A stretch of DNA of 64,000 nt from Sphagnum magellanicum (taxonomy: Eukaryota > Streptophyta > Sphagnopsida > Sphagnales > Sphagnaceae). Shown here one piece after another: positions 1 through 55,744 of the stretch. The first letter of the stretch is position 1. The number at the start of each line of letters is the position of its first letter. Where the stretch lies: the NCBI GenBank assembly GCA_021904315.1, contig CM038921.1, positions 12,492,146 through 12,556,145 of the forward strand. Direction: 5' to 3'. The position numbers were made by a program, and so were the translations under genes. The notes beneath the pieces were generated by a model. That model saw only the letters and a list, made by a program, of their open reading frames with translations. It searched no databases and had not been told where the DNA came from.

Positions 1-628
1 TCCCAGCCTCACATGAAGACAAGTGTCAAGTTGATACATGCCAGGTACACCTCACAATGCTCTTTCTGATTTAGGATCTATGAATCTTGAATACGTTTTC
101 CACAAAAAAACCAGGTGTCTCAATCTCTAGGTCCTCAATATTGTTCTGTGGCTTCACAGGTTTCTTGCATGATCAAAGACTGGACCCTGTCTTTGTTGTT
201 CTCTTCTTTAGTTGTTTAGCAATTGTCATTTACACATGATTGATTTCTTCATTTGCCACAGCCCACTGCATTAGATAAGTTAACAAAGTGGATTCATATT
301 TTCACGTGCGATTTGAGTCCCTTAGATTGTATTATGAACATTGAAGGTAACTTGGGATCTTTTGGTTCCTTGTTGTACAAAACAAGTTCAGGAAGTCAAA
401 ATTTCCAGAGTAGGTTCTGTTGCACCTTTCATCCTCCATGGGTAATAATACATAATACTCAAACTCAATCAGACTTTGCTATGGAGTGGTGCTGACTTTA
501 CTGTTTTTGTATGCAGATTGCATGCACAGGCCTTGACATTGGCAGCACTAGCTGGATGTGCAGTGGTAGAATACTATGACCACCAAAGTGGAGAGAAAGC
601 AAAGAAGTATGAGAAACACATTCAGTAG
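1..628 (+). CDS. HIG1-domain (hypoxia-responsive) protein, 3' part
   Basis: Two exons are visible: 1-44 (partial, the gene starts upstream of the window) and 517-628, ending in TAG. The join at CCAG|GTACAC and TATGCAG|ATTG keeps phase and gives a segment ending a helix with KTSVKLIHAR, then LHAQALTLAALAG and VVEYYDHQSGEKA. This matches the C-terminal half of plant HIG1-domain proteins, small inner-mitochondrial-membrane proteins related to respiratory supercomplex factors. The second hydrophobic helix (ALTLAALAGCAVVEYY) is present, followed by a short charged tail rich in K and E. The first helix would lie upstream and cannot be checked. The family's role in respiratory chain assembly and low-oxygen response is general knowledge. 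Bases 45-516 are intron. Confidence 0.8.
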
Positions 629-1807
629 TTCCCTGCAAGTGGGAATAGTTACAGATTATACCTTGAATAACATGAAGGTGAACAATTGTTCAAAAAGAGA
701 GGATCCCTGTATTTTAGTATATCCATTCATTGTACATGGTAGATCCAATACTATCTTGTTTTGAGCAACAGCTGAACAATCTTCTAAACTCAAAGAGACT
801 AAATAGTTCTAAGGCATTGCAAAGACTGATATACTTACAGGCATTTGCATCAAGGCAATTGTTGACATGTTCAGTGATGGTATATTATCTACACCCACCA
901 CAATGAGCTGATGAAGCCAGTGGGTAGTCAATGGTCATGGCAGCAAGTCACTGCTATTAACAAGGATGGTGATGGTCTGAAACTTGGTGACTGTCAAATG
1001 GTTTTGTTTTCATTTTGCTTGAACTGACACAACAGTTGTTGATGTTCAAAGTGGTATTATGAAGTTTTCTTGTCCACCTCATAGATAAAGTTGAGTCCTT
1101 TGATTGGGATTTTGAAAGATCTGGTTGGATCTTCAGAGAGATTGCCTGGTGGTGACTTGTGCATTAGTACTCAGGTTGTTACTGTGGTCCCATGGATTGA
1201 ATGTGTCCATATCTTAATGCTAAAACAGGAAAGCAATCCAATAGTTCTGTGTTGCAATTTGGAGTCTCTGTTTGCACCACAACACAGGCCTGTGTCTTTG
1301 GAACTAAGCAATCACTCTGCATTCTAAGCTGTGTTCACAAACAAGAGCATCAGGAGTGAGAGAAGAAGACCTTCACAAAGTTGCCTCAAGTAGCCTGCCT
1401 CATGTCTATGCACATATTCATGTGACCTCACATGATCAGAGGTTTAAAGTCCAAAGTGCTCTTCACACGTCTTCTACCACCTAGATCAACAACTTCTATA
1501 TCTGTGGTGGTGAATGGAGCAAGAAAGGTAAGCTCCGTTCTCGGTTAATTTGCCATTCCACTTTTGCTAAATGTAGTGAGCACAACGACACAAATGAACA
1601 GTTTTCTCAGCCAGTTTCCACTCCGTCAACCTAACTGCAAGATGGAAATAAGAGAGAGCAAAGGCATCTTTGAAGCTTTCACAAAATGCCAATCGTCTAG
1701 AGACAAGGAAGATAGAGAATTTGCATGTTTCCAAGGAAGTTGAGAATTCATAACAAACAGATTGAGGATTTTGCAAGAGTGCAAAGAGAAAACTAGTTCT
1801 TCCACCT
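629..1807. other. Intergenic / converging 3' UTRs
   Basis: This stretch lies between the stop of the HIG1 gene (+) and the stop of the cupin gene (-), so it should hold both 3' UTRs facing each other. I see no conserved coding segment or structured RNA. Short open frames here have no recognisable domain and no splice context. Confidence 0.5.
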
Positions 1808-2356
1808 CTAGTCATCTCCATAGGCACGAAATCGATATCTTTGCTCAAATGGTCCATCAAAGCAAAGCTGAGCAGAAAACCATTTGGGATAGCGGACATA
1901 ATCACCAGCATAAAACCATGTGCTGTCTTTGCATTCCTCAGGCGTAACCTGAACAGAACCTTTGACTATGAAAACCTCTTCGTCCACCTTCCATTCCCAA
2001 GGGACCACACACTTGTCAGACTCCCATTTTGACCACTTGTTGATTCCCAGTTCTTCCATGCGCTCTTTGGAGATATTCTTCTCGCAGTGGATCTTGAATC
2101 TCTCCTCAACAGGCCTTAAGACTCTGGCTGTCACTGCAACAACTGCTGCTGTTGCTGCACAATGGTTCTTTCCAATTGCTAATCTACTAGAGCCACCTCC
2201 AATTGTGCGGAGATTTGTACTTGATGTGAAGAACTGGGAGGAGGATTTCAGGGTGGAATTCTGCTGTGTGGATCTTGTCCCTTTGAAGCAAGAACGCTCT
2301 GGAAGAGAAGCTGCTGCCGGCTGCAGCCTAGTCTGAGTCACCAGCATTGCAGGCAT
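1808..2356 (-). CDS. Plastid-targeted cupin (DUF861/Cupin_3-type) protein
   Basis: A single-exon frame of 182 codons with ATG at 2356 and TAG at 1808. Residues 1 to about 85 are rich in S, T, R and A with few acidic residues, as in a chloroplast transit peptide. The mature part starts near RPVEERFKIHCEKN and holds a compact beta-barrel domain: GINKWSKWE, VPWEWKVDEEVFIVKG, FYAGDYVRYPKW, then an aromatic RYRFRAYG end. The order W-x-x-W, W-x-(V/D)-x-E-x-(V/F)-x-x-x-x-G, G-D-x-V-x-(F/Y)-P is typical of the plant EutQ/DUF861-like cupins. The classical HxH metal site is absent, which fits this subgroup; its reaction is unknown to me. It is head to head with the glucosidase II beta gene, with about 717 bp between start codons. 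Confidence 0.75.
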   Translation of the reverse strand: MPAMLVTQTRLQPAAASLPERSCFKGTRSTQQNSTLKSSSQFFTSSTNLRTIGGGSSRLAIGKNHCAATAAVVAVTARVLRPVEERFKIHCEKNISKERMEELGINKWSKWESDKCVVPWEWKVDEEVFIVKGSVQVTPEECKDSTWFYAGDYVRYPKWFSAQLCFDGPFEQRYRFRAYGDD

Positions 2357-2775
2357 GTCTGTGAGAGAAGACGAGGAAGAACTCGTCTACAAATCTAACA
2401 CACGAAGAAAAATCTCAAAGGGAAAAGATAGGGATCAAAGCCTCTCTCCCTAACTCTACCAGCCTCAGCTATTCTTTCTGAAAGATCCTGTAATCAATCA
2501 ACCGAGCTTGCTCCTGAATTCCCCTGAGAAAGAAAACAGCAACAGCAGTGGAAGGAATTTTTTGATCACCCTTTCACGGCACGCTAGATTCTTCCTCAAC
2601 CAGTCGAAACAGAAAGAAAATAAAATCCGCAGAGACAGGGACTAACGGCGAAGAAAGGAAGCCTCAAAATTGCAAGGGAGAATAATAACCTTCGCAGAGC
2701 AAGAAAACTAGAGACACAAAAGCAATTCGAAAGGATATAAGAAAACCAAACAAACCCAAAAGCACCGAAAGAGAG

Positions 2776-2815
<40 letters not shown>

Positions 2816-3073
2816 CCCAACCCTCGAGACGGAAGAGAATCGTGAAGGTTTAGGCTGGGGAAGAGAAGAGAGAGAGGCCCACAAAACCCCTGGTGAGAAT
2901 TAGGTTTAGAAGAATTAGGGTTAGAGCTTTCAGGGTTTCAAGAGAGAGCTTGGCCTGTCGTGCTTTTGAAAATTCCATTCCGTCGTTGATTCTTTCTTTC
3001 TTTCTCGCAGCTGATTCCTAGCGGAGTAGACTGTTTTGGTTTTACAATTGATATGGTTTTTCTTTGGTAGAGG
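2357..3073. promoter_or_regulatory. Head-to-head intergenic region, likely bidirectional promoter
   Basis: The start codons of the cupin gene (-) and the glucosidase II beta gene (+) face outward from this 717-bp stretch. It contains a (GA)n tract at 2778-2813 and telo-box-like motifs near 2900-2940 (AATTAGGGTTAGAG, CAGGGTTTC), common in plant 5' UTRs and core promoters of housekeeping genes. No clear TATA box is visible on either side. Shared regulation is inferred from geometry only. Confidence 0.5.
2778..2813. repeat. (GA)n microsatellite
   Basis: Uninterrupted GA repeat between the two divergent genes, likely in the promoter or 5' UTR of one of them. Confidence 0.9.
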
Positions 3074-4861
3074 ATGAGGAAGTTTTGTTGCAGCTTGAAT
3101 GATTCGGTACCGATAGTATTCGCATCATGTCTGCTGCTGCAGATTCTTCTGTTGCTTGCGCTTGTTCAAGCTGTTGCTGCTGCTGATTCAGTGTTTTCCA
3201 GGAGCACGGGGATTGCTGCACCTCAAGAATGGGGTTTGTTGTATGACAGTGCAACAGCAACGTTCGGCTGCAAAGATGATGATGATGATGCCTCCTCGCA
3301 GCATCATCGCCGCTTTGCCATAGAGCGTTTCAATGATAACTTTTGTGACTGCCTGGACGGAACAGACGAACCAGGTACATCGGCTTGTCCTGACGGAAAA
3401 TTCTATTGCAACAATGTAGGATACGTGCCACAGTACGTGTTTTCTTCTCGCATTAACGATGGCATTTGTGACTGTTGTGATGGAAGCGATGAGTATGATG
3501 GAAGAATCAAGTGCGCAAACACCTGCTGGCAGGTGGGGAGAGAAGCCAGAGAGAAATTGGCCAAGAAACTTGCCATGTACAAAGAGGGTTTGCGCATCCG
3601 CAGGCGGGAAGTTCAGAATGCCAGGGTTTTGCGCCTCAAACAGGAAACTGAAATTGCCTCCTTGAGGCAAGAGGAGAAGAGTCTTGGTAAACTGATCCAG
3701 AACCTCAAAGAAGCTGTAGACAAACTGGAAAGACAGCAGGAACAAGCATCCAAGGCCATGGCAGCAAGTGAGAAATCAGAAACAGACCAAAAACCGAAGG
3801 AGGAGAAGCTGCCTGATGGTTCCTCTCAGGTTTCAGCATTTCACAGCTTGCCAACTGCTCAATTTCTAGAGGCACAGACTTCAGAGCTTAGCGATCATCA
3901 TGATATGGATGTCCACATTCATTGTGATGCTGGAGCAGAGAGCGATTGTGAACTTGATGCCTCAAAAGAGGATGCTGCATCAGAAGAATCGCATGTGGAG
4001 GGAGACCCTGATTTGGCACAGCTATCTAGAGAAGAAATGGGCCGTATAGTGGCTTCGCGCTGGACTGGGGAAGAGACAGGCCTTGATACATCACATGCAG
4101 GAAGTGACCAGCTGGAAATGACTGTTGAGGATTGTGAGAAAACTGAGGATGAGCCTGAGGACAAGGATGATATTGAGTTCAATGGAGGTAACAAAGATGA
4201 TGATCTGTGTGAAGGAGGCAATGGTTGTCGAGATGAGGGAGATACAACTTACAGGGAGGAAGAGGAGGAACACCAACCTGTGTTGAAACAGGAAAAACCT
4301 GCTTGGTGGACATGGTTTTGCTCAGTTGCTGAGATGCTGAGAAATCTCTTTACAAGGAGTATGGCTGACAAGTCAGAAGCAGAACAGGTCAGGAAACAAT
4401 ACTCTGATGCTACTGGAAAGCTGAGCAGTATAAAAGCTCAAATTGCAGAGTTGGACACAATATTGAAGCAAGACTTTGGGGAAGAAGGAGAGTTCTCTTC
4501 TTTCTATGAGCAGTGCTTTGAGCTGAAAGTGAAGCAATATGTCTACAAAGTTTGTCCATTCCAGGAAGCAACACAATTGGAGGGCCACACCAGCACTCAC
4601 CTTGGTGACTGGGATGGCTTCAAGGACAATTACTCCGCCATTATGTTTTCTCATGGTGAACACTGTTGGAATGGACCAAACCGCAGTTTGCGGGTTGAGC
4701 TGCAATGTGGGAAAAGGACACAGTTAAAAAATGTAGATGAGCCCAGCCGTTGTGAATATGTGGCAGAACTCACAACCCCTGTTTTCTGCTCAGAATCAAG
4801 GGTGGAGCAGCTACGACAGGAACTGGATGGGCAACTAGCAGCAGCCTGTGATGAACTGTGA
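3074..4861 (+). CDS. Glucosidase II beta subunit (PRKCSH-type), intronless
   Basis: One uninterrupted frame of 595 codons from ATG 3074 to TGA 4861. Residues 1 to about 37 form a signal peptide (LLLQILLLLALVQAVAAA). A cysteine-rich N-terminal pair of LDLa-like modules follows, with FNDNFCDCLDGTDEPGTSAC and ICDCCDGSDEYDG, the calcium-binding repeats of this family. Next come a charged coiled coil (about 130-200), a long acidic stretch (about 225-400), a second coiled coil, and a C-terminal MRH domain with FSSFYEQCFELKVKQYVYKV, GPNRSLRVELQCG and EPSRCEYVAELTTPVFC, keeping the Q, R, E and Y expected to bind mannose. The protein ends in CDEL, an HDEL/KDEL-like ER retrieval signal. With the alpha subunit it trims glucose from N-glycans for ER quality control. 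Plant orthologues I know have many introns, so the lack of introns is unusual and may mark a retrocopy that kept an intact frame. Confidence 0.93.
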   Translation: MRKFCCSLNDSVPIVFASCLLLQILLLLALVQAVAAADSVFSRSTGIAAPQEWGLLYDSATATFGCKDDDDDASSQHHRRFAIERFNDNFCDCLDGTDEPGTSACPDGKFYCNNVGYVPQYVFSSRINDGICDCCDGSDEYDGRIKCANTCWQVGREAREKLAKKLAMYKEGLRIRRREVQNARVLRLKQETEIASLRQEEKSLGKLIQNLKEAVDKLERQQEQASKAMAASEKSETDQKPKEEKLPDGSSQVSAFHSLPTAQFLEAQTSELSDHHDMDVHIHCDAGAESDCELDASKEDAASEESHVEGDPDLAQLSREEMGRIVASRWTGEETGLDTSHAGSDQLEMTVEDCEKTEDEPEDKDDIEFNGGNKDDDLCEGGNGCRDEGDTTYREEEEEHQPVLKQEKPAWWTWFCSVAEMLRNLFTRSMADKSEAEQVRKQYSDATGKLSSIKAQIAELDTILKQDFGEEGEFSSFYEQCFELKVKQYVYKVCPFQEATQLEGHTSTHLGDWDGFKDNYSAIMFSHGEHCWNGPNRSLRVELQCGKRTQLKNVDEPSRCEYVAELTTPVFCSESRVEQLRQELDGQLAAACDEL

Positions 4862-5724
4862 TACAAGAAAGCACTTCTCAGGGAGAAAAGTCTGAAGTTC
4901 CTTCTTTATAGGAGTTCTCCCTTGTCCTCTGAGAGAGAACCATATTTCAACTTCCATTGCCCAATGTCCTCTAAAATTTGTAAATTAGCTTGGAAACCAA
5001 TCTGTCATGTTTGACATCTTATGACAACTACTGCAGAGTGGCCATGATTGCCACACACTAGACTAACAGCAGCTTGGAACACCAGCTTGTTGAAGTGTCC
5101 AAGAGGAATTAGGAACCACAATTGGCCCAGTTACAGTTTTAAGGTGTTAGTATGTGTCTTATCTGTTCTTCTCTAAGCCTTCCTTGACATATAATACTTC
5201 TTTGTCCCATGTATAAATCTCTCTACAAATCTCAAAACTGTCTTGGAGCAAATTTATCGAAGAATCTAAAACAGGCAGGCATTTTTGTCTTCATGTGACA
5301 AGGTGGGTGGACATGGATGTCATGTTAGTTCCCCAGTGATACTTCTGCTTCTTTATTCGAACCTTTCTATAGACCCAAGGACACTTTTGGACCAAGTGAC
5401 CAAGTGCAAAACTGTGGAACATTTGTTGATGATCCAAATGGGCTCATAGTCAAAGATTATGGTAGAAGGAAATTTGCCAGTGCCTATTTCTTGGTAATCC
5501 AGACTTATGGGAACCATGGGGTTTCGTATTCAGCATTTTACCCAGCAAGTAAGGAAAGGTGAAGGGTTTCTAGGTTTCTTTTCTCGTACTTGTCAGTTTT
5601 CGTATGTATTTTCTTCTTTCACTTCAAGGTGGTCTCCTGGCCTCTCTACAGAACTCCACTAAGCCCTATTGGCTGCCCTGTGTTGCTCAAGTACCCTTTT
5701 GGATGTTTTGCTTTTAACTCTCTT

Positions 5725-5758
<34 letters not shown>

Positions 5759-6011
5759 GCCTCTGAGATTCCAATTCTTGTGTTCTCATTGCTTCACAGG
5801 TGCTTTGTGTGAATTGCCTTCATCTGATTTGTATGTGATTGATAGGCTTATTACTTGTTTGTTGGCATCATTGAGCCTTAGTTGCACCACCACATGAGCT
5901 CTCATACCTTGTACTCTGCGTCCAGCAATGAATAGTATGCTTAGTGGGGATGCTATAATTATAGATGGTTTGTGTCTGGTTGCTTGTATCATCTGAATCA
6001 GTTGCCTTTTG
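4862..6011. other. 3' flank of glucosidase II beta with a (CT)n tract
   Basis: AT-moderate sequence, probably 3' UTR then intergenic. It holds a (CT)n microsatellite at 5726-5756. I see no coding exon supported by splice sites and no structured RNA. Confidence 0.4.
5726..5756. repeat. (CT)n microsatellite
   Basis: About 15 CT units, lightly interrupted at the 5' end. Confidence 0.9.
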
Positions 6012-6014
6012 TGA

Positions 6015-6344
6015 GAGATCTCCAGTGGTGCTCATATGTGACCCCACAAAAATATTTCTGAGATCCAAGTTTAGTTATTTACTTTTTTCCAACCCCACCC
6101 ATAAGACTACAACTGGGACTGCAAATAAGTGGGAGACTACTAATAGCAACTGACCAGGATCAATCAAACTATCTAGCCAATCAACAGCAGGTGTTAGTCT
6201 TTGCTGTGCCTTTTACCAGCCTCAGCAAACTGGAAAAAAATGCTAGGCCAAAACCATTTTGCTAAACCAAACCAGTGTGTTTTGACTTTTCTTCATCCAA
6301 TTTTCGTTTGCTAGGTCACATACCGAGCACCAGTGGAGTTGCTC
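6015..6344 (+). mobile_element. MITE copy 1 (PIF/Harbinger-like, ~330 bp)
   Basis: The left end GAGATCTCCAGTGGTGCTC and right end GAGCACCAGTGGAGTTGCTC are inverted copies of one another, allowing for small gaps. The element is flanked by TGA on both sides (6012-6014 and 6345-6347), a 3-bp target duplication. The interior shares TTTAGTTATTTACTTTTTT, CAACCCCACCCATAA and GACTACTAATAGCAA with five other copies in this window. There is no transposase frame, so it is non-autonomous. Confidence 0.8.
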
Positions 6345-7730
6345 TGAGCATAACTCTGCAACTTGTTGCTCCAATACTTGGGGCACAGGAGGCATGGACT
6401 CAGCAGCCCACACATCATGAATTGAGGTCATAAATTCTAACTTAGTTTAGGTCAGAATCTCATATGTCATGGACTTGGGCGTTGCTGGAGAATTTGTACT
6501 AGCCAACATCATGACCAAGGTCACCCCATTACTTCAGAACAGAAACTTAGGATGCATATCCAGATCCTGAAATTTTGGGCTGAGTGTGACTACATATCTA
6601 CACACACTGTCGGAATCTGATGAAGTGAGTGGGTAATCTACATCGCTGGTGCATCTGCTTCTGCAATTGCAATACATCAACTCTCCTACTTAGGATCTGA
6701 CAGATCCATTGCCCTTGTGTTGGGGTCTAGTAGAAGGCTTCAGAATATGCAGCTGCACAGTATTGAGATACAAGACTATAAGAGCCAGGAGGGCATCATG
6801 GTCACATGGTTTCTTCTGAGGAAAGGCCAGAGCTTCCTGCATTTGTTAGTTGAGATTTGAGCATATAATTGCAACAGTGTTGTTTCCTAATAGAGATTTG
6901 AGTTTACCATTGCTTGGCAGTTTGAGGCTCAACATCCCCTTCCATAAACCTTAAACTTGGATCATGTGATCAGTTCAGCCATTGCTCTGAATTCTTCCTA
7001 ACAATAGTACAATGCTGAAAACCCATGTATTCTTCTCAAATAGAAAACCATGTGGGATCTGTTGGCAAATCCTTCTCCAGCTCCTACAACTCCTACATCA
7101 CTTAAAACCTTGTCATTTGTGATATGCAATGAGCAATCTACTGATACTCTGCAATGACATGAAAGGGTCATGTAACATGTACAAACTTTGCAATAAGGTA
7201 AATTGTTTGGTCTTGGAATTGAAAATTTGCTGCATGGTTCCCTTCCACATGCACAAATGCAAGCCATCAAAATAGCTTCCATGGTGTACACAAAGGATTG
7301 AATGTCATCAGCAATCAATTGGGTTTTACACAAAAATCAATGAGAAAAATGGGACCACCTGATCAGTTGTTGGGAAAGCAAAGAAGCCAGAACATAGTAT
7401 CACCACTCCCAAGCCTCTTTTCTAAACCGCCTTTTCAGTGATGGGTATCCCAATAATAGCATGGGAAAGCTGCCAGTTTCCACACTTTTCCTGCAGCTGA
7501 CATAAAATTCAATATTGAGGTAGCAGTCACTGAAAATGTTTCAATGATGCTGCAAAAGTAAATATAGGTCATGACGGTTAACAGACCAAATGCATCTGCC
7601 TCTACTCAATTGAACATACACAGCAATGTCTCCTTTTGTCATCTTGTGGTGTGCATATGGACCCATTTGCTTGTTTGTTGTAGTGCAAAGATTCTCTTGC
7701 ATTATAGATAAAAACTGGAAACATTTCTGC
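6345..7730. other. 3' flank of the alpha-amylase gene
   Basis: Sequence downstream of the amylase stop codon (minus strand). It probably contains its 3' UTR. No domain, splice-supported exon or RNA gene is recognisable. Confidence 0.4.
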
Positions 7731-10700
7731 TCAGTTCCTTTGCCAGATTTGATAGCCATCCCTGTCGATGCATCGCTCCCAGCTACCCGTGAGGTTGTTT
7801 TGTTTAGATGGGTTCCAATCAAGGTGGCCTATTTTCATGACAAGACTTTCCCCTACGTTGGCAACATAGCCTTCGAAATTGGCTTGCAAGATCTTGACCG
7901 GGCTCCGGCAATGCACACCCGTACGAGTTCTCACAGCAATGAGCTCTGCAATTTGGTCATGTAGACCAAAGTCGTAAAAATGATCATAGAATATCACTGG
8001 CTGCTCCAATCAAAAACAATGATGTCAGAGACAGGCGAGAATGACCTTGTTGTAAGAGTTTGACAGTAGACATCTGCATCATTGCTATCACTGAAAAATA
8101 ACCACAAGAACATCAAAAGACTCTTGCCCTCAAGAAAAATTCCAAACTTTGTCATAAGCAAAATAGTCAATTTCTCATAAAGAATTTAGCTCAGCTGTTG
8201 TGCTCTCCAACCCATCAATAAAAAAATACATGGTTGCCTTACCGTGCCAGGGTGAGTAAGAATGTATGCATAACCCATCATGATCTTATCACGAGGGAAG
8301 GGCCAATGTCCCTGCAAGAGCAAAATGTGAAATCAGAATATATCATGACCAGCACTTTCATATGTTTCTTGCTCAAGTAAGAGCACTTGGTTTTTGAAGA
8401 AACATTTCATCCAAAACAAGAAGGGTACTTCCTAACTTTTTGTCTTGGACAGCAACAGAGACCCGACAGAGAAAAAAACCGAAGAGCACACCTGTGTTGA
8501 GCCAGTGTCATGGTTCTCAAGAAAGGTGACTGCCCGTGAAGGCCACCATCCCATGACCCCCGGTGGCTTGCCTTGAGGATCTATCAGCCTCCAAAACTCA
8601 CCATGTAGAGCAGAGTGTAGTATGCCCTGTAAAAAAATTGGAAAGACAACCAAATCACTCCCAACAAGTGTCACATGAATTGGATTGAAACCCTAAATGC
8701 ATGTGAAATCAGTGTTGACACCTTTCAGACCTTTAAGACTGCAGGATAAACCATAGTTGCAGGGAAAAGAAGACCACTTCCAAGGTAGAAAAGACTCATG
8801 GTACTGTTGTACCTTGGTTGTCACATCAAATGCTGATGATGTCCCACCAGCAGCATTGATCCAGTTGATAATGCGCTGTCTGTGAGAGTCTGCACCCCAA
8901 CCCTGAACCATTCAATACCAGGGCACACAAGATGCACCTAGTGATCTACAACCTGCAACCTTAGCTTTAGGGCACAGTGGAACTGTACCATGACACATAA
9001 CAGAAACAGAATCTTCCAACATTTCTAAACATGCAAAGAGTGTTGAGTAAGTTCCTCAAGGATCTGATGGAAGTATGGCAGAACCTTGATTGTAGCACAC
9101 TCGCCCACCCTCATAAGCCAGACTGTCCCAGTATTCACCAATTGCAAATGCCGGTTTGGTCGCCTCAATGTATTCCTTTACATATCCGCCCCAGAATCCC
9201 CTGTTCCAAAGAAATTTGATGGGCATCAGATAACCCATTGCAAGATAGATAGATCAGAGCTACACACAAATGTGCAAATGCTCCTAACTCAAATTTTGAC
9301 TTCAGACAACTATTGTGGTGTAGTCATTACTTGTGACTTTTAGGATTAAGGAGAAAAAAAGCAGTAGACCCACCTGACAAAGTCTAGACGCCAGCCATCA
9401 AACTGAAAATCATTCCGCAACCATTTCATCCACTCCTTGATGTCCTTCCGCACAAATGTTTGGGAATGGTCAATATTGGGTGCTGCATGAAAGATATCAC
9501 CTGCAGAACGAGAAATGGGATACAGAGATGTGCGTGAAGGCTATCCAGGATCACCTAGATGCTAAGGGCATATACTAGCTTGTGTTGACATTTTGACCTT
9601 CCCAAAAAACAGTTTCTACACACATGTACCATCAGAAGTTCTTAAAATCAGCTGCATAGAATCCAGAGCAAAGTCTAACTGTGTACAAACACATAAATGC
9701 CAGAGACAAACTATGGATGTGTCAAAGATGCCCAAAGCAACATGCAATGCCCATGGTAGTATTGCACCAGGTAAATGAAACCGGATAATTACCACTAGAA
9801 GGATTTCCACGGCCTTGGAAGTTTGGGTCATCTCTTACAATTGCCTCCGGGCCCCAATCAAGTTTGCCTCCAAACACATTCCAAACACCATTTGAGCCCT
9901 ACCCATTTTTCACCCAGCCACAGTCCATCCACCACAGATAGCAATCCCCATCATTCAGTATCAACTATTCATATGCATCACAAACCAGTGAAGCAAAAGG
10001 GTGGGTGGGAGAAGAGTTGGAAACCTGACCCTAAAAAGAAAAAGATCTGAATCTGCTCCTCTGGGAACTTCAAGCAATAGATCACATGTCATGTTACAGC
10101 AACTTCGCATAATGTGAACCCTATATAAACCATCTATTTATCAATCTGATAACCTGGTCAAAATGGCAGGCCCATCACCTGCTTTTGAGCACATCGATGA
10201 TTGAGAACCACATCTCCAAGAACCTGCACCACCACCCAACAGTTCTCACAATCTCAAAATCAGATGGGTGTGTATATTGGGTCCCTCCAGCTTTTCTGCT
10301 TTTTCCATGGTATCCATCCTCTATCTTCTCAGCCAAATATGGAATGTGAAGTGCACAACCAAAACAGCAGGGAGAAATTCTGTATTCTGAAAACAATGTG
10401 CAAATTGAGTGACCCGGAGAGAGAGATGTCTTCTTCACATACCAGAATGTTGTGGTTGTGCATTTCAGCAATACATTGCTTCAATTCGTCTTCTGTGCCA
10501 TATGCCGAGTTCAGGTTGTATAGATCCCCTGGCATATACCCTGCAACATGGATATGCCTCACGAATTTTGAGTTTAGGGTTTAGGATTGGACTGCATGCT
10601 TTGTCTGTGCTATCCAGTTTCAGCCACACCATGAAGCTCAAATAAGCAAGTACCCCTTTGATGATGGTACTGAATGAAGAACTGGCAGCAGTTGACAGAT

Positions 10701-13170
10701 TCCAATATAAAAGCTGCTGGAAATTTTGCAAAACAAGGGTGGCAATGCACAACAGAGAGTTACTAGAAGATTGTGCCCACCTTGAGGGGCTACTGAGTGT
10801 GTAGGTGGTGGTAACCATATCGTAGTAATACCACACTTTGAAAGATCTGCTGCCTTTGGAGCAAGTTCCACCCACCAATCTCGTCTCCAGCTTTCCCAGT
10901 TGAAGCCTTGAAACTAGAACAACAATGTATGTACCAATTGGGTTTAGTTCTCAGGAGCATGAATTGTTCTATATTCTCTTACCAAACTCTTGTGCTCATG
11001 ATGATGTCAAGCCTTGAAAAGCAAAGCCACAAATGCACAGCCACAACAACAGAAGCCAAACTTGCTACCAAAGTGATGGGTATACCAAAGTGATGTTGTT
11101 GACACAGGAACACAACATAAACATGTTGTGACTGCACTCATCACCATTTGCGGAGGTCACAAACTATTGTGTGTCAGTAGAGGATGTTGACAAGAATTAT
11201 CAGAACTTACCACAATCTCATGGCCTGTTCCAGTGCCTGATGCTGCAAAACAAGAGAACATTGGCAAACCTCAAGTCCAGCTCTGTAAGAAGGGGGGGAG
11301 TAAGCACAGACTGAAACCCACCATCATCAGGTTTCTCCAAGTCCAATAGATGATTTCAGTAGAAACAAGGAGTTTTGAAACAACAATGAGATTCATTCAT
11401 GCATGCAAAGTGAGAAAAGATTTGAGAGACAAACCCAGTTTGCCTTCTGCTTCTTCTGGGTCCTTTGCCTGCTTCTTGATGGTCTTTCTTTCGAGAGCTT
11501 GTTCAAGCACCTTCCTTTGTAAGTCAATTTTTTGCTTCTCAGCTGCTTCTGCAGTGTACATGTCATCCTTCACCCTTGCCTTTGCTATGGACCACACATC
11601 TCCTGGGGATGGAAGTTCCAATGGCAGCATGGCTTCAACATCAGCAGAGCTCGGCAATGACTTCTTTGGTGGCAGTCCTTGTTGTCCTACATCAAGTCGC
11701 CGTTGCATCCATTCTGGAGTTTCCCGTCTTGGACCATTTTCCAGAAGGTCATGTCTTCTTGAGTCTTTCTCCAGAAGCATCTGCATGCGCCCACCACCCA
11801 TTATCTGCTCCACAGCACTCTTACTGCTGATGGTTTCAACCCCAAGTTCTTTGACCTGCCTCAGCATATCCTCAGCAGTCATCGCACGGGTCTTCCACAC
11901 TCCAGCTGCAGCTTCAGCTGCTGCTAATGATCTCTCCAGTACTTGATACTCAAGTCCACTTGCCTGTGCTCTCTCATCTTCCATTTTCTGACCTGAAGTA
12001 TTCACAGCTTGTTGAAGAGCTTCCAACTGGCCATTGAATGCAACCCTTGCAGTCTCTTCTTTCACAGCTGTAGCATTCATAAGGACTTCAAGTGCATGTC
12101 TAGAACTGTTCTCACATTCATCTACAGCTTTATCAGCAGCAACCTGGATCTCATGCACCGATGCTTCAGCTGCTACAATGCGTGCCTCCCCAGCTTTTGT
12201 CAAAGCTTTGGCAGCCTCAAGCTCTGTGTGAAGAGATTTAATGGCTGCATTGGCCACCTCCAGCTGATGAACCGCAGCAAGAAGACCCTCTTCCAATGAC
12301 ATAACCTTTTTCTCGGCATGAGATAACTCATGTAGCAACCCAATATGTTCAACTAGTGCTGCTTCCGCATTTTTAGCCTGTTCTTTGGCAGTTTCAGCAG
12401 CTGTAAGAGCAGAGTTGATTGCAACACCTGCTTCCTTGACAGCAGATGCAGCAGTATCATCAACTGTGTTCTGCAACCTTTCTAACAACTTGTGCTTCGA
12501 ATCTGCAGCAGGCATAATCTTTCCTGGTGGCATGTGACTGCTGCGCTGAGAGAATCCAACCCCTTTTTGGCTCCCAACTCCTTCAAGAACATCTGCATTC
12601 TCACCCTGCAAAGTGAAGTTTACCACTGAGGAATGCACTAAAGATGGCAAAACCAACTGCAGAGTGGATCTAAACCCTAAACTGGATCTTTTTGGAGGAC
12701 AGCAGGTGAGAAGAAGAGTAGGGGGTTCGACACCTAACCTTTGTTGAAGTAGCAATAATGAGGAATGGAGAACCATGTTTGTGTTGAAACCGCATCCGAT
12801 GGTGTTTTTCAATTTGTGAGTACCTGAAAGAAAGCGCAAAGAATTCATGCCATGTTTTGGTCACTTATTTCAACAAACAAAGGGAAAAAAATCAACGTCA
12901 ACAGTGCCAGCTGCTGCATGGAAGTTGGCATGTGGAGTGGCTGAGAGCCTCTCATGTGTACCTCTCTGCAGCAGCAAATGAAGTCCTTTGCTGTGAGCAC
13001 AAACTGTTATTGTGAACAAGTGATTGCAGCGGATATGGACATCTTGAATAAGGAACAGCTTGCTGTAAAAGGACAAGCACTGTGTGACTCATAGGAGAAG
13101 CTGCTACTGCTGCTGCTGCTGGAGCCTTCTGTAAGACTCCAGACACATTTGCATGTGCAATTGCTGCCAT
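7731..13170 (-). CDS. Chloroplast alpha-amylase (GH13) fused to an N-terminal coiled coil
   Basis: Fourteen coding exons: 12962-13170, 12676-12823, 11435-12605, 11211-11242, 10781-10913, 10443-10540, 10179-10223, 9793-9898, 9374-9500, 9085-9200, 8813-8889, 8492-8626, 8243-8311, 7731-8000. All joins use GT-AG and keep phase, giving 911 residues. Residues 1 to about 119 look like a plastid transit peptide. Residues 120-509, one large exon, are an Ala/Glu/Lys-rich coiled coil. From about 510 an AMY3-like catalytic domain follows: [24 protein letters not shown] (nucleophile D687), [10 protein letters not shown] (acid/base E712), ENHDTGSTQ (D794). All three catalytic residues are present, so it should cut internal alpha-1,4 bonds of starch. 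The tandem starch-binding (CBM45) region known from AMY3 is not seen. An acceptor just before the ATG (TTTTTACAG, near 13180) suggests a 5' UTR intron. Alternative: a start at 12776 with exons 2-3 read through. Confidence 0.85.
11435..12605 (-). other. Coiled-coil domain exon of the amylase gene
   Basis: This 1171-nt exon encodes about 390 residues before the catalytic domain. It has long heptad-like stretches, for example [19 protein letters not shown] and [18 protein letters not shown], few prolines, and many Ala, Glu and Lys. Its last part ([18 protein letters not shown]) stays helical up to the splice into the amylase domain. The next exon joins in frame (phase 1) at [10 protein letters not shown], the start of the GH13 fold. 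I do not recognise the coiled coil as a named starch-binding module. Confidence 0.75.
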
Positions 13171-14068
13171 TTTTATCTCCCCTGTAAAAACCAAAAAGTA
13201 TCCCGTCAGTGACCAATTGCTGAGAAAGATGAAAACAACTCTCGGGATGTCAGTTCACAGCACATCTGCACAACAGTAGAGTCAGTCAGCAAACAACACA
13301 CGACATCAAGAGGAGAGAGAGAATTAGGTAATGGGTTTGAGATATTTGGATGATCATCCCAATAGAGTGACAAATGGGAAACATTTAGACCTAATTCATT
13401 GGAGTTTTGATTTCAAAGCACTTGCAAAAAAGTCTATGCCAAAGTTTGATCCCGATTCTAGAAATGGTCTTACAGAGTACTTTCTGAGTGCTGTAAAATC
13501 CCGCAACCAGCTTGGATAAGCCCTATTCCACTATGTACTCTGCCAATGCATAATTCTGCAGCTCAATTGGGTACCCATTGGATATTGCTTGCCCTACTCT
13601 GAAAACTGAGCCTTTGTTTTGTCTCTGGACCAAAATCCAAGCTTTTCCATACCCATACCCATTTGTTTGTCAGAGAGGGGAAGGACCTTCAAACACACCT
13701 CCAGTACTGCATCTTCTGAATTTGGACTCTAGAGGAAAATGGGTATTTGGGTTTCACCTGAAAAGGAAATGTGTTACAGAATTTCTCTTCAGCGGCACTC
13801 CATCCACAACACAAGGAGGATTCCTCTTGTCTGTCTGGTTTCAGCTCTTCCTTCCTTCCTTCCTTCTTCTCCCCAGCTGCTACAGATTTGAGATTCGCAA
13901 GCTCAGCGTGTGTAAATCACTCCCAAGAGACTCTCAAAATCTACCTCCAAAACACAAGGACTCCAATTGACCCAGAAGCTGAAAGAAAATAAAATCCCCA
14001 AAACAGGACCTGCACCCAAATCATAAAAAAAGAATGAAGATCTGATGAGAAAAAGATTTGCCACCACC

Positions 14069-14070
<2 letters not shown>
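13171..14070. other. 5' leader and upstream region of the amylase gene
   Basis: The likely 5' UTR intron and upstream exon of the minus-strand amylase gene. A 62-codon open frame on the plus strand at 13331-13519 has no recognisable domain and no splice support. Nothing else stands out. Confidence 0.35.

Positions 14071-14128
<58 letters not shown>
14071..14128. repeat. (CT)n microsatellite, about 28 units
   Basis: Uninterrupted CT tract of roughly 57 bp upstream of the amylase gene; read on its coding strand it is (GA)n. It may lie in the distal leader or promoter. Confidence 0.9.
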
Positions 14129-14129
<1 letters not shown>

Positions 14130-15390
14130 GAGTCTCTCAGAGATATTTTGCCAAAATCCAATTTTTCCTATTTTCACTTCCCATCTCTGAAATCCAACCA
14201 CAACTCCTGCTCAAAATCTTCTGCTAAAAACCAAAATCTCTCAAACCCACCATCTATTCACTAAGCTCCAAACCTTCAAACCTAGTACCAAGTAATTTCA
14301 GTACAAGCTCCCTTGCTGTCTCCGCTAGGCTACAACAACCTCAATAGCAGCAACTTTCCAATGTTACTCAACATTGACACCTCAAGTTCTCAACCCAACA
14401 CCACCATCAACACCATCACCACACCACCATCACCAACTCTTTGAATCTAAAACAGATGCAAAACACAAGACAAAAGTTCAATAGCTTTCTATACCTGAAT
14501 CCACCCAAAAAAAAAAAAAAAACCAAATTCAATTTTTTTTTTCCTTGCTGAGAAAGGAAAGGATTGTGCTGAAGCTGATGAGAGTTGAGTCTTCAGATTG
14601 AAAATTTGTTGTGTGTGGGAGAAAGAAGAGTGAAGAAGAAGCCAAAACTTGTGTGGGTTGTGTTTTGATTGTGTGGATTTGTATGTGTTTTGTTGTTGGG
14701 TTTTTTTTCTTTTTTTTTTGTCCCTTCCCATATGAAGAAGCTTTTGTTTTGCTTAGTGTGAAAAAAGTGACTTCACTTTTCCTTTTGACAAGACTTTTAT
14801 CCCATTTCTTTCTCTCTCTCTTTCTCTCTCTTGGGTTCCTATTTTGCTCATTTCATTTTCCCCTCTCATTTTTCCTCTTTGTTGTTGTGTTGTTTCATAG
14901 TAATAAAAATATTCATTTCATTTTTCCCTTTTCATTCCCTCTTTTTTTTTTCTTTTTTTTTTTGGGTTGTGGTGTTTTTTTTTAGTAATAAAGTCCTTAT
15001 TTGATTTTCCTTCACATTTGATTTCCTCTTCATTGTTGTTGTGCTATTTTTATAGTAAAATAAAGTGCTCATTTCCTTTTTCCCTCTCATTTTTCCTCTT
15101 TGTTGTTATGGTGTTTTCATAGTAATCAAATTTTCTCTCTAACTTAAATGTTAGGTTATTCTAGAGCTTAGGGTTTGGTAAAAATAGCACTGAAACAATA
15201 ATTGAATTGTAAGCCCTTTGAGAAGAAGGGAAGGTGACATAAGTCTTCTTCTTCTTTTGTGGTGGGTCATGAGCTACTTAGTTTATCATAAATTTTTTTG
15301 TTTATTATCTCATTGTTCTTGTTCTTTGTTTTTTTAGTTCTTATTCTCTTCTTCTTGGAAACACATTGCACTTGTTGGTGCTCTTTTTCT
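14129..15390. other. T-rich low-complexity region
   Basis: Long poly-T and TTTCTCTC runs with recurring phrases such as TTTCCTCTTTGTTGTT and ATAGTAATAAA near 14870, 14975 and 15100. This suggests weak duplication. The frames it opens are low-complexity Phe/Leu and are not genes. Confidence 0.6.
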
Positions 15391-15394
15391 TCAC

Positions 15395-16510
15395 TTTTCT
15401 TGTTAAAGTTCGTTACCAAGCGAGTGATGGTGCAATGTTGTTGGTCTTTTTCTTTTTTTTCTTGTTAGAGTTCGTTACCAAGCGAGTGATGGTGCAATGT
15501 TGTTGTTCTTTTTCTTCTTTTTCTTGTTAGAGTTTGTTACCAAGTGAGTGATGGTTTGAATGGGGAATTTTTTTTCCATTGGTTGGACCTCAATTGGACT
15601 AGTTTTTTCCAATCAAACCAAAGCCACATTAAGTTGGGAAGTGGGCGATGGTTTGAATGGGGAATTTGTTTTCCATTCGTTGTTGGACTTTGATTGGACT
15701 AGTTTTTCCAATCAAACCAAAACCGCATTAAGTTGGGAAAGGTTTTTCAACCAATTGTTGTGTTTTGCTTGTGGGTGTTGCTCTTGCTAAGATCATGACA
15801 AGCAAAAAGAGATTGGCATTGCATCCATTGGGTGCTTTTTCCATCAAAGGAAGGGCTCCATTTGTTGGTGGTGGGGCATTGGATTTGGATTTGGTCTATT
15901 CATGTGTATTATGAATTCAAATCAATACCTTTAGAATGAAGCTTTCCATCCAACGAAGGGTTCCATTTGTTGGTGGTGGGGTATTGGATTTGGATTTGGA
16001 TTTGGTCTATTCATGTGTGTTGTGAATTCAAATCAATACCTTTTAAGAATGAGGCTTTCCATAAAAGGAAGGGTTCCATTTGTTGTTGATGGTGTGGCAA
16101 TGGATTTGGATTTGGTCTATTCATGTGTTGTGAATTCAAATCAATACCTTTAGGATGAGGCTTACACTATCTCATCCATCGATGGTGTGTGGTTTGGTGG
16201 TGGGGACTTGTCTCTTCAAATGAAAAAGTCAACAATAATGTTGGCCTTTTTCATATCTACCTATCAATTTGTTGGTCAATCTCTTTGCAAATTTGACTAA
16301 GATCAAGGTTCCACGTATTAGTGGGTCTCTTGTGAAATTGAGTGAGATCAAAATTCTTTGTGAATTGTATTGTTTTTTTCACATCTACCTATCTATGTGT
16401 AGGTCAATCTTTTTGCAAATTTGAGTAAAGATCAAGATTCCATGTGTTAGTGGGTCTCTTGTGAAATTGAGTGAGATCAACGTTCTTTCCATGTGAATTG
16501 TCGAGTCTCT
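15395..16510. repeat. Series of adjacent tandem duplications
   Basis: Four unrelated units follow one another. A ~61-bp unit (GTTACCAAGCGAGTGATGG) occurs three times at 15.40-15.55 kb. A ~97-bp unit (GTTTGAATGGGGAATTT, then CCAATCAAACCAAA) occurs twice at 15.55-15.75 kb. A ~110-bp unit (CCATTTGTTGGTGGTGGGG, then TTCAAATCAATACCTTT) occurs three times at 15.84-16.16 kb. A ~127-bp unit (GTGGGTCTCTTGTGAAATTG) occurs twice at 16.25-16.49 kb. Copies are still very similar. Confidence 0.85.
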
Positions 16511-41883: not shown

Positions 41884-42314
41884 ATGTCACAGCTTGTTCC
41901 GAGCCACATTCCGAACCTATTCTTCTCCCGAACCCAAACTTCTCCGAACCCTTGGATTAGGGTTTGGAGCTCCATGTTTCGGTTTCTTTCGTGTCCATTG
42001 TTTTGTCTCGCGCAGGGCTGCTGCTGTGCAAGAGGCGCGTTCGCAACTGTCTCCGGTAGGTAGGTTTCGTGTGCTCTCTTCGTCCCCTGTTTCTCGTTCT
42101 TCACTTGGAAGAATTTCGACGAAAGTTAGAAATTTTCCACTCGTTGCCAAGCATGCAGAGTGTGCGAAACTTTGCTTATCTTGGACGCGTTATCGTGGGT
42201 AGTAAAACTAGCGAAGTCGTGATTCTTGGGGATGAAAGTTAGACCGTGAGTTTGTATCTTGGGTTCTGACGAGTGGGATTTATTTATTTATTTATTCCTT
42301 CTTACAGATAAGAT

Positions 42315-42831
42315 ATGGCCAAGTCTAAAAATCACACAGCGCATAACCAGTCGTACAAGGCGCACAAGAATGGCATCAAGAAGCCAAAGAAACATAAGTA
42401 CACTTCAAGAAAAGGGGTAAGTCGTATTCGTGAGGAGACTTAGTTCCATCTTGTTTTTCTCCTTGGAGGAAGCCTGCAGTATCAGCTCCGGAATAGACTC
42501 AGGTTTCCACATCTGGTATGATTTCGGTATGATGAAGAAGAGACTAAGTCTCCGTCATTGGGCAATTGCGAAACCCTCGAGTTTCACTATATTTTTTCAG
42601 CCTCAATTGCTGACAGAGCTGCGGAGCGTGGTTCTGGATAAAATGTCCTGATTCCAGCTTTAGTTTTCTTTTCAGGGCTTTTTTGTTGCGTTAGGCCAGG
42701 TGAATGGATCATGGTTTATGAAGATTTTTGACATTTTGGTGCAGATGGACCCAAAATTTTTGAGGAACCAGAGATATGCCAAGAAGCACAACCGCAGTGC
42801 TGCTGTGGAGGAAGAGGAGGAGGAGACATAG
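42315..42831 (+). CDS. RPL29: 60S ribosomal protein eL29 (L29)
   Basis: Two coding exons, 42315-42416 and 42745-42831, joined at AAAGGG|GTAAGT and GGTGCAG|ATGG, give 62 residues. The N-terminus [20 protein letters not shown] and the segment [14 protein letters not shown], then [16 protein letters not shown], are the hallmark of eukaryotic eL29, a small basic large-subunit protein. The acidic tail (VEEEEEET) follows. A leader exon with its donor near 42055 (CTCCG|GTAGGT) and an acceptor TTCTTACAG at 42307 indicate a 5' UTR intron, as in many plant ribosomal protein genes. A telo-box-like motif near 41955 fits co-regulation of translation genes. The length and full motif set make this one of the safest calls here. 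Confidence 0.96.
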
Positions 42832-44167
42832 ATGAGCAGTTCATGGCAGAAACTGGTCGGAGTTTCTGCCTTCCAAATTTGGGAACTCCTTACTCTGGGC
42901 TTCACTTCAACAAATCTTCTTTCTTGCTTCAATTTTTTTTTGTGCTTCCCATTTTATATTGATTTCCTTGGTCATCTCTGTCTCTTTAATGTTTTGCTGA
43001 GCTAGCTAGTGGCATGGCTGACTCTCTCCCCCTTACTGTTCATCTCATGTCAGGAAGTCAGTATGACAGTGGAGGTATGGTATTGACCTTTCCTGGCACT
43101 GCTAGTTTTATGACAGACAATTGGTTGAGGTTTGATATTGACCTTTCCCAGCACTGCTGGGAGCTGATGAAGTCAGCGGGGGAAGTTTTGGAAGCTGGTC
43201 ATTACCATACATATCGCTTTTGAAGGTTGTGAACACATTTTGTTCAAACTTGTGTGTGTCTGTCAGGGTTTTCTGTGGCTTTTGATGGTTTTAAGTATTC
43301 TCTTTTTCATGTTTGTGGATAAGTTGGATCTTGAATCTCCAGAACATTGTCAGGTTATGTCTTGATTCTATTCCAGGTTGTCCTGAATTGTAAGAATGGA
43401 AAACTTTCTCGATCGTTATGAAGATCTGTGAGCAAATCTGTTTGTTGGCTGTTAAATTGTGGCTGTCACTATGCCAATTGTTGTCTGACATGTCAGCACT
43501 TTCCCATGGATCCTGTTATTTAACAGAGGTTGAACATCTGTGATCTTCACTTGCTCCTAAGCTCATCAACATTTCTCTCACCAGGCCTCTGATGTTTGGT
43601 ACAAATGCCAGCTTGCCAGTATTTATGTTGTATGAAGTCACAATACAGTTTTAACCTATTCTAAATCCAATAGGGGGGTGTAAATCAAAACTATCGGACT
43701 ATTTAATATGTTCTCAGCACAACTTTGTAGCTTTCAAAAGGTTTGCATCCACTTGACAGATGAGAGATTTGGCATGAGCTCCCTTTGGAGAAGACTGGGA
43801 AGATTTCTATTGATATTTGATAAGGGAATCAATTTCCCAGTGGTACAGACTTCCATGCAATTAAACTCATGCATGAAATACAAGAAATTCTGGTTTCCAA
43901 GGTGTACATTGCTGTCAAGAATTGCAAACTAGACATAGATGCTGCATATGTAGCAGTTGGATGTTCAAATGAATGTTTTCATCCCTTGGTCATGGAATTT
44001 CTTTCACAATTTGAAACCATATCCACATTTGAGAAGAGGAAAAAATCTATTGGTATGTAAACACTCATCACCATCATCAGGACTGGTTTTCCAGTGCCCT
44101 ACTGAACACAACCAGAGGTGACTGCCTTCTTCCATCAATCCTTTCCAAAGTCTCAAGTGTGTGGGGT
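42832..44167. other. 3' flank of eL29 and convergent 3' flank of the rhomboid-like gene
   Basis: The eL29 (+) and rhomboid-like (-) genes converge here. A duplicated phrase, TATTGACCTTTCC followed by CAGCACTGCTGG or TGGCACTGCTAG, occurs twice near 43080-43165. Short frames at 43708-44060 have no recognisable domain. Confidence 0.45.
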
Positions 44168-47100: not shown

Positions 47101-47262
47101 TAATAAGAAGAAACTCCTGCTGCTGCTGCGAGGAGTTCTACACATTGCCGCCCCTCCAAACTTCCGAAAGCCATTTCTGAGGGGACAAGAAGAAGCTGGA
47201 GGCTCCTTGCAGTAGTAGTAGCTCCTCAATTGAGCAGCTTGCAACCCTTGAATACTAGCCAT
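44168..47262 (-). CDS. Plastid rhomboid-like membrane protein lacking the catalytic serine
   Basis: Six exons: 46596-47262, 46217-46475, 45361-45526, 44982-45152, 44679-44833, 44168-44453, giving 567 residues with phase kept throughout. The N-terminus is Ser/Arg-rich and plastid-like. Two copies of a short motif, LDAYFDKLH (141-149) and LDAYFNKLH (208-216), precede the membrane part. The rhomboid fold follows: TLVGVNLAVFLFGLASP, GEWWRLVTPMFLHSN with its loop WR motif, FGPGVESAYG, GNLMSFFHTPQGTVGGTGP and DDWTHLGAGVVGIVFGL. The second catalytic residue, His475, is present. Where active rhomboids have GxSG, this protein has G-G-T-G (Thr421), so it is probably a pseudoprotease like some plastid rhomboid-like proteins (RBL9/11 type, from memory). 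About 45 residues after the last histidine include an acidic loop and a final hydrophobic helix (LLLVFALCLALFFSLYNLG). Confidence 0.85.
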
Positions 47263-47399
47263 ATTTCTCTCTCTCTCCCCCTCCCTCCCCGCCCAAAAAA
47301 TAACTCAGAAAAAAAAACCCCGTTACCACCTTCTTCACATATGGAGCTGTAACATCATTCTGTCCAATCGGCACAGAAAACAAAACCAAATTTTTATTT

Positions 47400-47424
47400 C
47401 TCTCTCTCTCTCTCTCTCTCTCTC
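47400..47424. repeat. (CT)n microsatellite in the rhomboid-like gene leader
   Basis: About 12 CT units some 140 bp upstream of the start codon; on the coding strand it reads (GA)n. Likely 5' UTR. Confidence 0.85.
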
Positions 47425-48082: not shown

Positions 48083-48105
48083 GAGAGAGAGAGAGAGAGA
48101 GAGAG
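48082..48105. repeat. (GA)n microsatellite
   Basis: GA run directly at the end of the 67-bp array. Confidence 0.85.
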
Positions 48106-55740: not shown

Positions 55741-55744
55741 AGAA

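What the first reader, a model, noticed from the sequence alone, without database searches (positions are those of the whole stretch)
7731..13170. A plastid alpha-amylase whose N-terminal half is a ~390-residue coiled coil
Hand-built exons give one continuous product: transit peptide, a single large exon of Ala/Glu/Lys heptads, then a GH13 catalytic domain with D687, E712 and D794 intact. The plastid AMY3 type I know has tandem starch-binding modules in front of the catalytic domain. Here they seem replaced by a coiled coil, which could anchor the enzyme to a starch granule, a membrane or a scaffold protein.
Basis: partly seen in the sequence, partly recalled or inferred. Interest (0 to 1): 0.75.

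Follow-up and report, generated by a model that had tools for sequence, protein, structure and literature searches.

The report
Moss chloroplast amylase with helical arm
A peat-moss gene for a starch-digesting enzyme, probably of the chloroplast, carries a long helical arm instead of starch-binding modules; it belongs to a known but little-studied plant amylase subfamily (AMY6) that is widespread in land plants but reported missing from the cabbage family, which includes Arabidopsis.

Summary
The gene is real. Fourteen exons (13170-7731, minus strand) give an uninterrupted 890-residue protein: a low-acid N-terminus, a helical region held in one exon, a conserved linker and a GH13 alpha-amylase with D666, E691 and D773 intact. 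No starch-binding module is found, while the same library finds one in a CBM45-type amylase. The coil claim needs trimming: AlphaFold shows one 220-residue helix (133-352), about 95 residues of linker with a highly conserved motif (GPRRExPxWM), then a short helix. 'Replaced' is not supported: this is AMY6, a separate plastid subfamily named in 2019; the four early land plants sampled there have AMY6 and lack the CBM45 type (PMC6426938, passages). I find arm plus amylase in hits from mosses, liverworts, ferns, lycophytes, gymnosperms, angiosperms and probably one streptophyte alga. The exon boundary at the foot of the arm looks shared by moss and angiosperms. None of 60 AMY6 sequences has Cys at AtAMY3's redox position 499. 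Some Asteraceae have a coil stub but keep the linker. The arm's partner is unknown; oligomerisation or docking is my best guess. A new member of a known kind.

The parts
7731..13170 (-). AMY6-type alpha-amylase gene, 14 exons, 2673-nt coding sequence, 890 aa
   Evidence: 13 introns, each GT-AG, no internal stop; P0001, P0002; tree
12739..13170 (-). Exons 1-2 (13170-12962, 12823-12739), residues 1-98: plastid-transit-like N-terminus
   Evidence: no D/E in the first 68 residues; plastid targeting of AMY6 predicted in PMC6426938 (passages); no targeting predictor was run here
11435..12605 (-). Exon 3, residues 99-488: helical region, linker and C-terminal helix in one exon
11844..12503 (-). Predicted 220-residue helix (residues 133-352), the coiled-coil candidate
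   Evidence: AlphaFold model of the window's own exon, pLDDT 75-98 over most of it; boundaries converted
11562..11843 (-). Linker (residues 353-446) with GGRM and LELP.P..VWSIA motifs; two short helices
11706..11735 (-). [10 protein letters not shown] motif (residues 389-398)
   Evidence: in 60 aligned AMY6: G 60, P 57, R 59, R 57, P 58, W 59, M 53
11463..11561 (-). Short C-terminal helix (residues 447-479) leading to the catalytic domain
11211..11242 (-). 32-nt exon 4 (to residue 499) joining the arm to the catalytic domain
   Evidence: same exon end (EIV, then divergent residues) in ORFs P0147, P0148 and P0181
7731..10913 (-). [quoted passage not shown]
   Evidence: Pfam PF00128 and PF07821; best PDB relative 3bsg, alpha-amylase type A isozyme, E 4.5e-133
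10911..10913 (-). Phe500 codon at the position of AtAMY3 Cys499 (redox switch partner missing)
9382..9384 (-). Catalytic nucleophile D666
   Evidence: aligned to a solved plant amylase
9134..9136 (-). Catalytic acid/base E691
8507..8509 (-). Transition-state stabiliser D773

Best explanation
The gene encodes a Sphagnum AMY6, an active plastid endo-alpha-amylase (shown: family and intact active site; inferred: activity and plastid import). It lacks CBM45 and would bind starch through the catalytic domain and its surface site (the WW pair, residues 760-761, is present). It carries the enzyme on a helical arm of about 33 nm (220 residues x 0.15 nm, inferred). The arm most likely oligomerises and docks the enzyme on another plastid coiled-coil protein, while the conserved GPRRExPxWM linker at the arm's foot acts as a specific contact or hinge. 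Without a cysteine at the Cys499 position it should not be switched off by the AtAMY3-type disulfide, so position rather than thiol state may control it. Oligomerisation, docking, the linker's role and the control are inferences.
For: Gene model and P0001, gapless over residues 1-591. Catalytic acids and WW pair in 59 of the 60 sequences of A1, the 60th, P0001, being cut short. Catalytic tree: window with three Sphagnum rows (100/99) and inside the mosses (100/99). No starch-binding module in 8 AMY6 proteins scanned (the model and 7 others), against a strong hit in the CBM45-type control. 220-residue helix at high confidence. Arm plus GH13 in listed hits from moss, liverwort, fern, lycophyte, gymnosperm, angiosperm and probably an alga. 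Linker motif kept in 53-60 of 60 sequences per conserved residue while most of the coil drifts. Cys499 position: 0 Cys of 60.
Against: No interaction, localisation or activity data. AlphaFold was run on single chains, so dimerisation is untested; the full-length P0002 model is poor (mean pLDDT 59.9) and breaks the helix at 287-295. Periodicity lies between heptad and hendecad, which also fits a lone helix. The coil is variable: Sphagnum lacks an N-terminal part seen in other lineages, and six Asteraceae proteins have little of it, so it may be a spacer. The linker also holds a variable block (residues 401-420 of P0002, entropy 2.14), and one coil block (301-320) is as conserved as the linker (1.30).
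Confidence: 0.5

Rival explanations
1. The arm is a passive spacer or solubility element: a long charged helix that keeps the catalytic domain away from other surfaces, with no partner. The linker and catalytic domain are what matters.
For: Arm plus linker are only about 28-35% identical between the window and most angiosperm rows; length varies; six Asteraceae proteins have little coil, five of them with the linker motif; periodicity mostly above 3.5.
Against: One stretch absent from Sphagnum (LVLAKQDAVELAVQVEKLAE...) is strongly conserved among the angiosperms shown, which a mere spacer would not need; 109 of 127 sequences examined have more than 350 residues before the catalytic start.
Confidence: 0.3
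2. The protein is a regulatory, enzymatically dead amylase, as the branching-enzyme-like MKIP1 became a splicing factor (PMC13172542, passages).
For: Unusual N-terminus; precedents in plastids.
Against: The three catalytic acids and the WW surface site are kept in 59 of 60 sequences, the 60th being cut short, and listed angiosperm AMY6 hits are 78-81% identical to the window over the catalytic part.
Confidence: 0.07
3. Two neighbouring genes, a coiled-coil protein and an amylase, were joined on paper.
For: The junction exon is only 32 nt.
Against: P0001 crosses the junction with no gap; P0003 and P0004 encode 2373 and 2316 coding nt on contigs of 2875 and 2660 nt, too short for unspliced genes if their introns resemble the window's; the arm-profile search showed no separate coil family among its 96 hits.
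Confidence: 0.02

Closest known systems
AMY6 subfamily of plant alpha-amylases (Ju et al. 2019, PMC6426938; abstract and passages seen)
   Same: Sphagnum fallax listed among its carriers; N-terminal extension of 460-570 aa; plastid prediction; closest to AMY5; tree here places the window with moss AMY6
   Different: The main text has 0 occurrences of 'coil'; its Fig. S2 and tables were not available to me and may show more. It reports AMY6 in none of 11 green algae; P0045 looks like a streptophyte alga sequence (gene-name style recalled).
AMY5 subfamily = Arabidopsis AMY3 (At1g69830), plastid, CBM45
   Same: GH13 domain, plastid, long N-terminal extension
   Different: CBM45 modules and a Cys499-Cys587 redox pair in AMY5; helical arm, GPRR linker and Phe (55 of 60) at the Cys499 position in AMY6. 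Only one AMY5 protein, P0023, was at hand.
Plastid coiled-coil starch proteins (PTST family, MRC/PII1, MFP1)
   Same: May work like: long plastid coils in starch metabolism (recalled; titles and abstract starts)
   Different: No homology detected: the arm profile returned 96 hits that look like AMY6 or its fragments, though only 7994 candidates were scored. No direct comparison with these proteins was made. None of them has a GH13 domain (recalled).
Barley alpha-amylase 1 (1ht6; 3bsg scores best)
   Same: Catalytic domain, 448 bits
   Different: Secreted (recalled), no arm

Membership tests
AMY6 (Ju et al. 2019) | Catalytic domain groups with moss AMY6, apart from AMY3 and AMY5 | tested here: met
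   window with 3 Sphagnum rows (100/99) and with Ceratodon and Physcomitrium (100/99), no AMY3 or AMY5 row inside. Limits: 3 of 26 named rows dropped (P0037, P0039, P0061, motif not matched); AMY5 is two copies from one protein on a long branch, unresolved among AMY6; AMY3 labels are mine; no AMY4 row; midpoint root; long-branch warning
AMY6 (Ju et al. 2019) | N-terminal extension of 460-570 aa | tested here: met
   window extension about 490 residues; 109 of 127 sequences examined have more than 350, range 372-658, median 565 among them
AMY6 (Ju et al. 2019) | Chloroplast transit peptide | tested here: inconclusive
   no D/E before residue 69 in the window, but nine other AMY6 have 2-5 acidic residues in their first 60; no predictor available
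AMY5 / AtAMY3 type | CBM45 modules in the N-terminal half | tested here: not met
   positive control P0023
AMY5 / AtAMY3 type | Cys499-Cys587 redox pair | tested here: not met
   Phe500 at the Cys499 position; Cys587 equivalent kept; 0 of 60 AMY6 have the first Cys, 60 of 60 the second
GH13 alpha-amylase | Catalytic Asp, Glu, Asp | tested here: met
   D666, E691, D773
Coiled-coil protein | Long continuous helix with core periodicity | tested here: met
   220-residue helix in the window's exon, broken once in P0002; alignment periodicity above most shuffles, but not a clean 3.5 heptad; no dedicated coiled-coil predictor was available
Coiled-coil protein | Oligomerisation through the helix | not testable with these tools
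   single-chain prediction only

The most novel reading that the evidence does not exclude
AMY6 is an overlooked, streptophyte-wide plastid amylase that is physically held on a coiled-coil scaffold (such as the starch-granule-initiation or thylakoid-associated complexes) and trims glucan primers in place. It would add a spatial control to starch turnover that Arabidopsis and its relatives have lost.
Probability: 0.12. Interest if true: 0.75.

Novelty: new member of a known kind. Interest (0 to 1): 0.42.

Why it matters
Starch breakdown is understood largely from Arabidopsis (recalled), whose family lacks AMY6 according to PMC6426938. An old arm-bearing enzyme suggests a second way of directing an amylase inside plastids, and it can be tested in Physcomitrium, where the CBM45 type is reported absent. 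It also bears on a published inference: that AMY3's Cys499 is found only in angiosperms (PMC8256493, passages) may partly compare two subfamilies, AMY5 in angiosperms and AMY6 in bryophytes.

Tried and rejected
A hidden further coil exon: six N-terminal coil pieces from other AMY6 searched against the window gave no significant hit (best E 3.0), so the Sphagnum arm is probably shorter, as in P0001 and P0002. A standalone relative of the arm: the profile of arm plus linker (A2) returned 96 proteins of 233-872 aa among the 7994 candidates scored (those sharing most words), weakest E 4.0e-47. They look like AMY6 or its fragments from names, Pfam and alignment; I inspected the ends of 62 of them and built no tree. 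A known fold: PDB profile search with the linker best E 0.32; Foldseek of the exon model best E 4.9. Own-genome search for paralogs: not answered. Rfam: no match in the window at gathering thresholds. Weak Pfam hits below cut-off in the N-terminal parts of P0045 (SPT2_N, TLE_N, YgaB) and P0054 (GAF_PdtaS) were set aside.

Literature: I found no description of the AMY6 coil in the listings, nor in the passages of the papers I opened. That covers open-licence PMC texts; supplements were not readable, including Fig. S2 of PMC6426938. Papers opened were seen as passages (PMC6426938 also abstract and outline): PMC6426938, PMC13172542, PMC13368610, PMC8256493, PMC6685290. The cassava paper PMC13368610 gave nothing on AMY6 for the terms I searched.
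Full report
What was checked. I rebuilt the gene from splice signals and protein similarity. Fourteen exons on the minus strand (13170-12962, 12823-12739, 12605-11435, 11242-11211, 10913-10781, 10540-10443, 10223-10179, 9898-9793, 9500-9374, 9200-9085, 8889-8813, 8626-8492, 8311-8243, 8000-7731) join in frame, the 13 introns are GT-AG, and the product is 890 residues with no internal stop.

Independent support for the splicing. A JGI protein, P0001, matches residues 1-591 at 97% without a gap, crossing the disputed junction between exon 12605-11435 and the 32-nt exon. Its last residues (VMGLPF) are exactly what the window's intron after exon 7 encodes up to its stop, so it looks like a transcript that keeps that intron. 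P0003 and P0004, from Sphagnum-like relatives, encode 2373 and 2316 coding nt on contigs of 2875 and 2660 nt; the window's gene spans 5440 bp. That these contigs are transcripts is my inference; I could not open them.

The organism. P0001 (97%) and Sphagnum fallax P0002 (80% over 882 aligned columns) place the window in Sphagnum or a close relative. The catalytic tree puts it with three Sphagnum rows (100/99) inside the mosses (100/99). That tree has limits: 3 of 26 named rows were dropped because a motif did not match, AMY5 is two copies from one protein, no AMY4 was available, subfamily labels of the outside rows are mine, and the program warns that long branches meet.

The arm. Pfam finds GH13 (PF00128) and the C-terminal amylase domain and nothing in the N-terminal half of the model, and nothing above a curated cut-off there in seven other AMY6 proteins, though P0045 and P0054 have weak hits below cut-off. 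The CBM45-type control P0023 hits PF23166 at 1.3e-100 in that scan. AlphaFold on the window's own exon with 75 relatives gives one helix over exon residues 35-254 (model 133-352), pLDDT 75-98 over most of it; then a linker with two short helices, block means 42-68; then a helix at model 447-479. The full-length model of P0002 is weaker (mean pLDDT 59.9) and shows the long helix broken into 124-286 and 296-339. So the coil is about 220 residues, roughly 33 nm if straight, not 390.

Results against a textbook coiled coil. With Ala counted as core, the alignment-averaged spectrum peaks at 3.62, 3.54 and 3.56 for three references, and power at exactly 3.50 is low (1.6-1.8). Shuffles reaching the peak: 0, 0 and 11 of 1000. 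With only large hydrophobics the peaks are 3.58, 3.54 and 3.46 and the signal is weaker: 38, 49 and 4 of 1000. Among single sequences, the window peaks at 3.64 and eight others between 3.50 (P0012) and 3.66 (P0063). The window's coil is matched by 11 of 500 shuffles and its catalytic domain by 8 of 500, so that test does not discriminate. A mixed heptad/hendecad coil and a lone helix both fit.

What it is. Ju et al. 2019 (PMC6426938; abstract and passages) divide plant amylases into AMY1-AMY6. AMY6 is described there as a novel subfamily with an extension of 460-570 residues and predicted plastid transit peptides, found in Sphagnum fallax, Physcomitrella, Marchantia, Selaginella, Amborella, two palms and almost all main dicot lineages except Citrus and Brassicaceae. 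The four early land plants have AMY6 and no AMY5 (the AtAMY3, CBM45 type). The window gene fits AMY6 on the features I could test. The word 'coil' does not occur in that main text.

How widespread the architecture is. Of the 2099 hits of the catalytic search, 120 were listed, at least five of which (P0022, P0023, P0025, P0027, P0031) are other amylases. Of 127 sequences examined (126 proteins then held plus the model), 117 have the catalytic start motif as I wrote it, 109 of these have more than 350 residues before it, and 104 match the GPRR pattern. The 60 aligned in A1 were my selection. Carriers include liverworts, ferns, Selaginella, Diphasiastrum, Cryptomeria, Amborella and many dicots. 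P0045 (SM000112S23996) and P0042 (Gb_18574) I read as Spirogloea and Ginkgo from recalled gene-name styles. If right, AMY6 predates land plants, against its reported absence in 11 green algae.

An old junction. Of 62 proteins of 400-560 aa among the hits, 57 end with the pattern expected if they run into a phase-1 intron at the window's own exon 3 boundary (KL then G). The pattern is loose; the five misses are P0181, P0188, P0204, P0207 and P0209. P0147, P0148 and P0181 also show the end of the 32-nt exon (GREIV, then unrelated residues). That these are genomic frames is inferred.

Which part is conserved. Per 20-residue block of P0002, mean column entropy is 1.69-2.21 in ten of the eleven coil blocks (121-340) and 1.30 in the other (301-320); it is 2.17 at the coil-linker border (341-360); in the linker and following helix it is 1.26, 1.38, 2.14, 1.27, 1.20 and 1.64 (361-480); in the catalytic domain it is 0.09-0.84, with 1.06 in the last block. 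The motif GPRRExPxWM is kept but not invariant: in 60 sequences G 60, P 57, R 59, R 57, P 58, W 59, M 53. The Sphagnum chr10-type paralogs read GLRR. Six proteins from genera I know as Asteraceae (P0054, P0074, P0079, P0090, P0097, P0102) have short extensions of 127-286 residues; five keep the GPRR pattern, P0079 does not; Cynara P0206 keeps an intermediate coil. Gene-prediction error could explain some of these. The arm is thus variable in length, the linker much less so.

Redox. AtAMY3 is regulated by a Cys499-Cys587 disulfide whose reduction activates it (PMC6685290, passages). In the one AMY5 protein here the two cysteines are 88 apart, as expected. AMY6 has Phe (55), Leu (3), Met (1) or Ile (1) at the first position in 60 sequences, and Cys in 60 of 60 at the second. 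PMC8256493 (passages) reports Cys499 only in the angiosperms it examined. If its bryophyte 'AMY3' sequences are AMY6, as the reported absence of AMY5 there suggests, the pattern partly reflects different subfamilies. I did not see its alignments.

Verdict. A well-preserved member of a known but little-studied subfamily. What is interesting is that the subfamily as a whole couples a complete amylase to a helical arm and a conserved linker, with no known starch-binding module in the eight proteins scanned and without the known redox pair. The function of the arm is open; docking or oligomerisation is my best guess at about one in two, a spacer the main rival.

Noticed in passing
window 10178-10158 (intron after exon 7): JGI protein P0001 ends by reading this intron exactly (VMGLPF, stop): an apparent intron-retained transcript that would give an arm plus a cut catalytic domain.
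   Followed up: partly
P0002, P0010, P0007 and the window gene: Sphagnum seems to hold at least two AMY6 types, perhaps three (S. fallax chr4-like, chr10-like, and the window/P0001 type). Identity to the window: 54-69% over residues 100-500, 93-95% over the catalytic part.
   Followed up: partly
P0024 (Sphagnum balticum, 579 aa): AMY6 catalytic domain behind an unrelated N-terminal stretch that resembles an RPW8-like segment by eye (recalled, no search); may be an annotation fusion.
   Followed up: no
P0054, P0074, P0079, P0090, P0097, P0102 and P0206: In these Asteraceae proteins the coil is reduced to a stub (intermediate in Cynara P0206) while the catalytic domain, and in most the linker motif, stay.
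   Followed up: partly
window 3071-4861 (+): Intronless 596-residue frame with glucosidase II beta-subunit domains (PRKCSH-like, 2e-33).
   Followed up: no
window 50144-51642 (-): Two overlapping frames that match the two parts of a serpin (Pfam 2.6e-78 and 9e-24), probably one gene with an intron.
   Followed up: no
window 1808-2386 (-): Frame with a Cupin_3 domain (2.6e-13) and a Ser-rich start.
   Followed up: no
window 16000-42000: GC is 28-36% in 2-kb steps against 36-47% in 1-16000 and 42001-52000; no closed frame of 170 aa or more lies there. GC falls again at 52001-56000.
   Followed up: no
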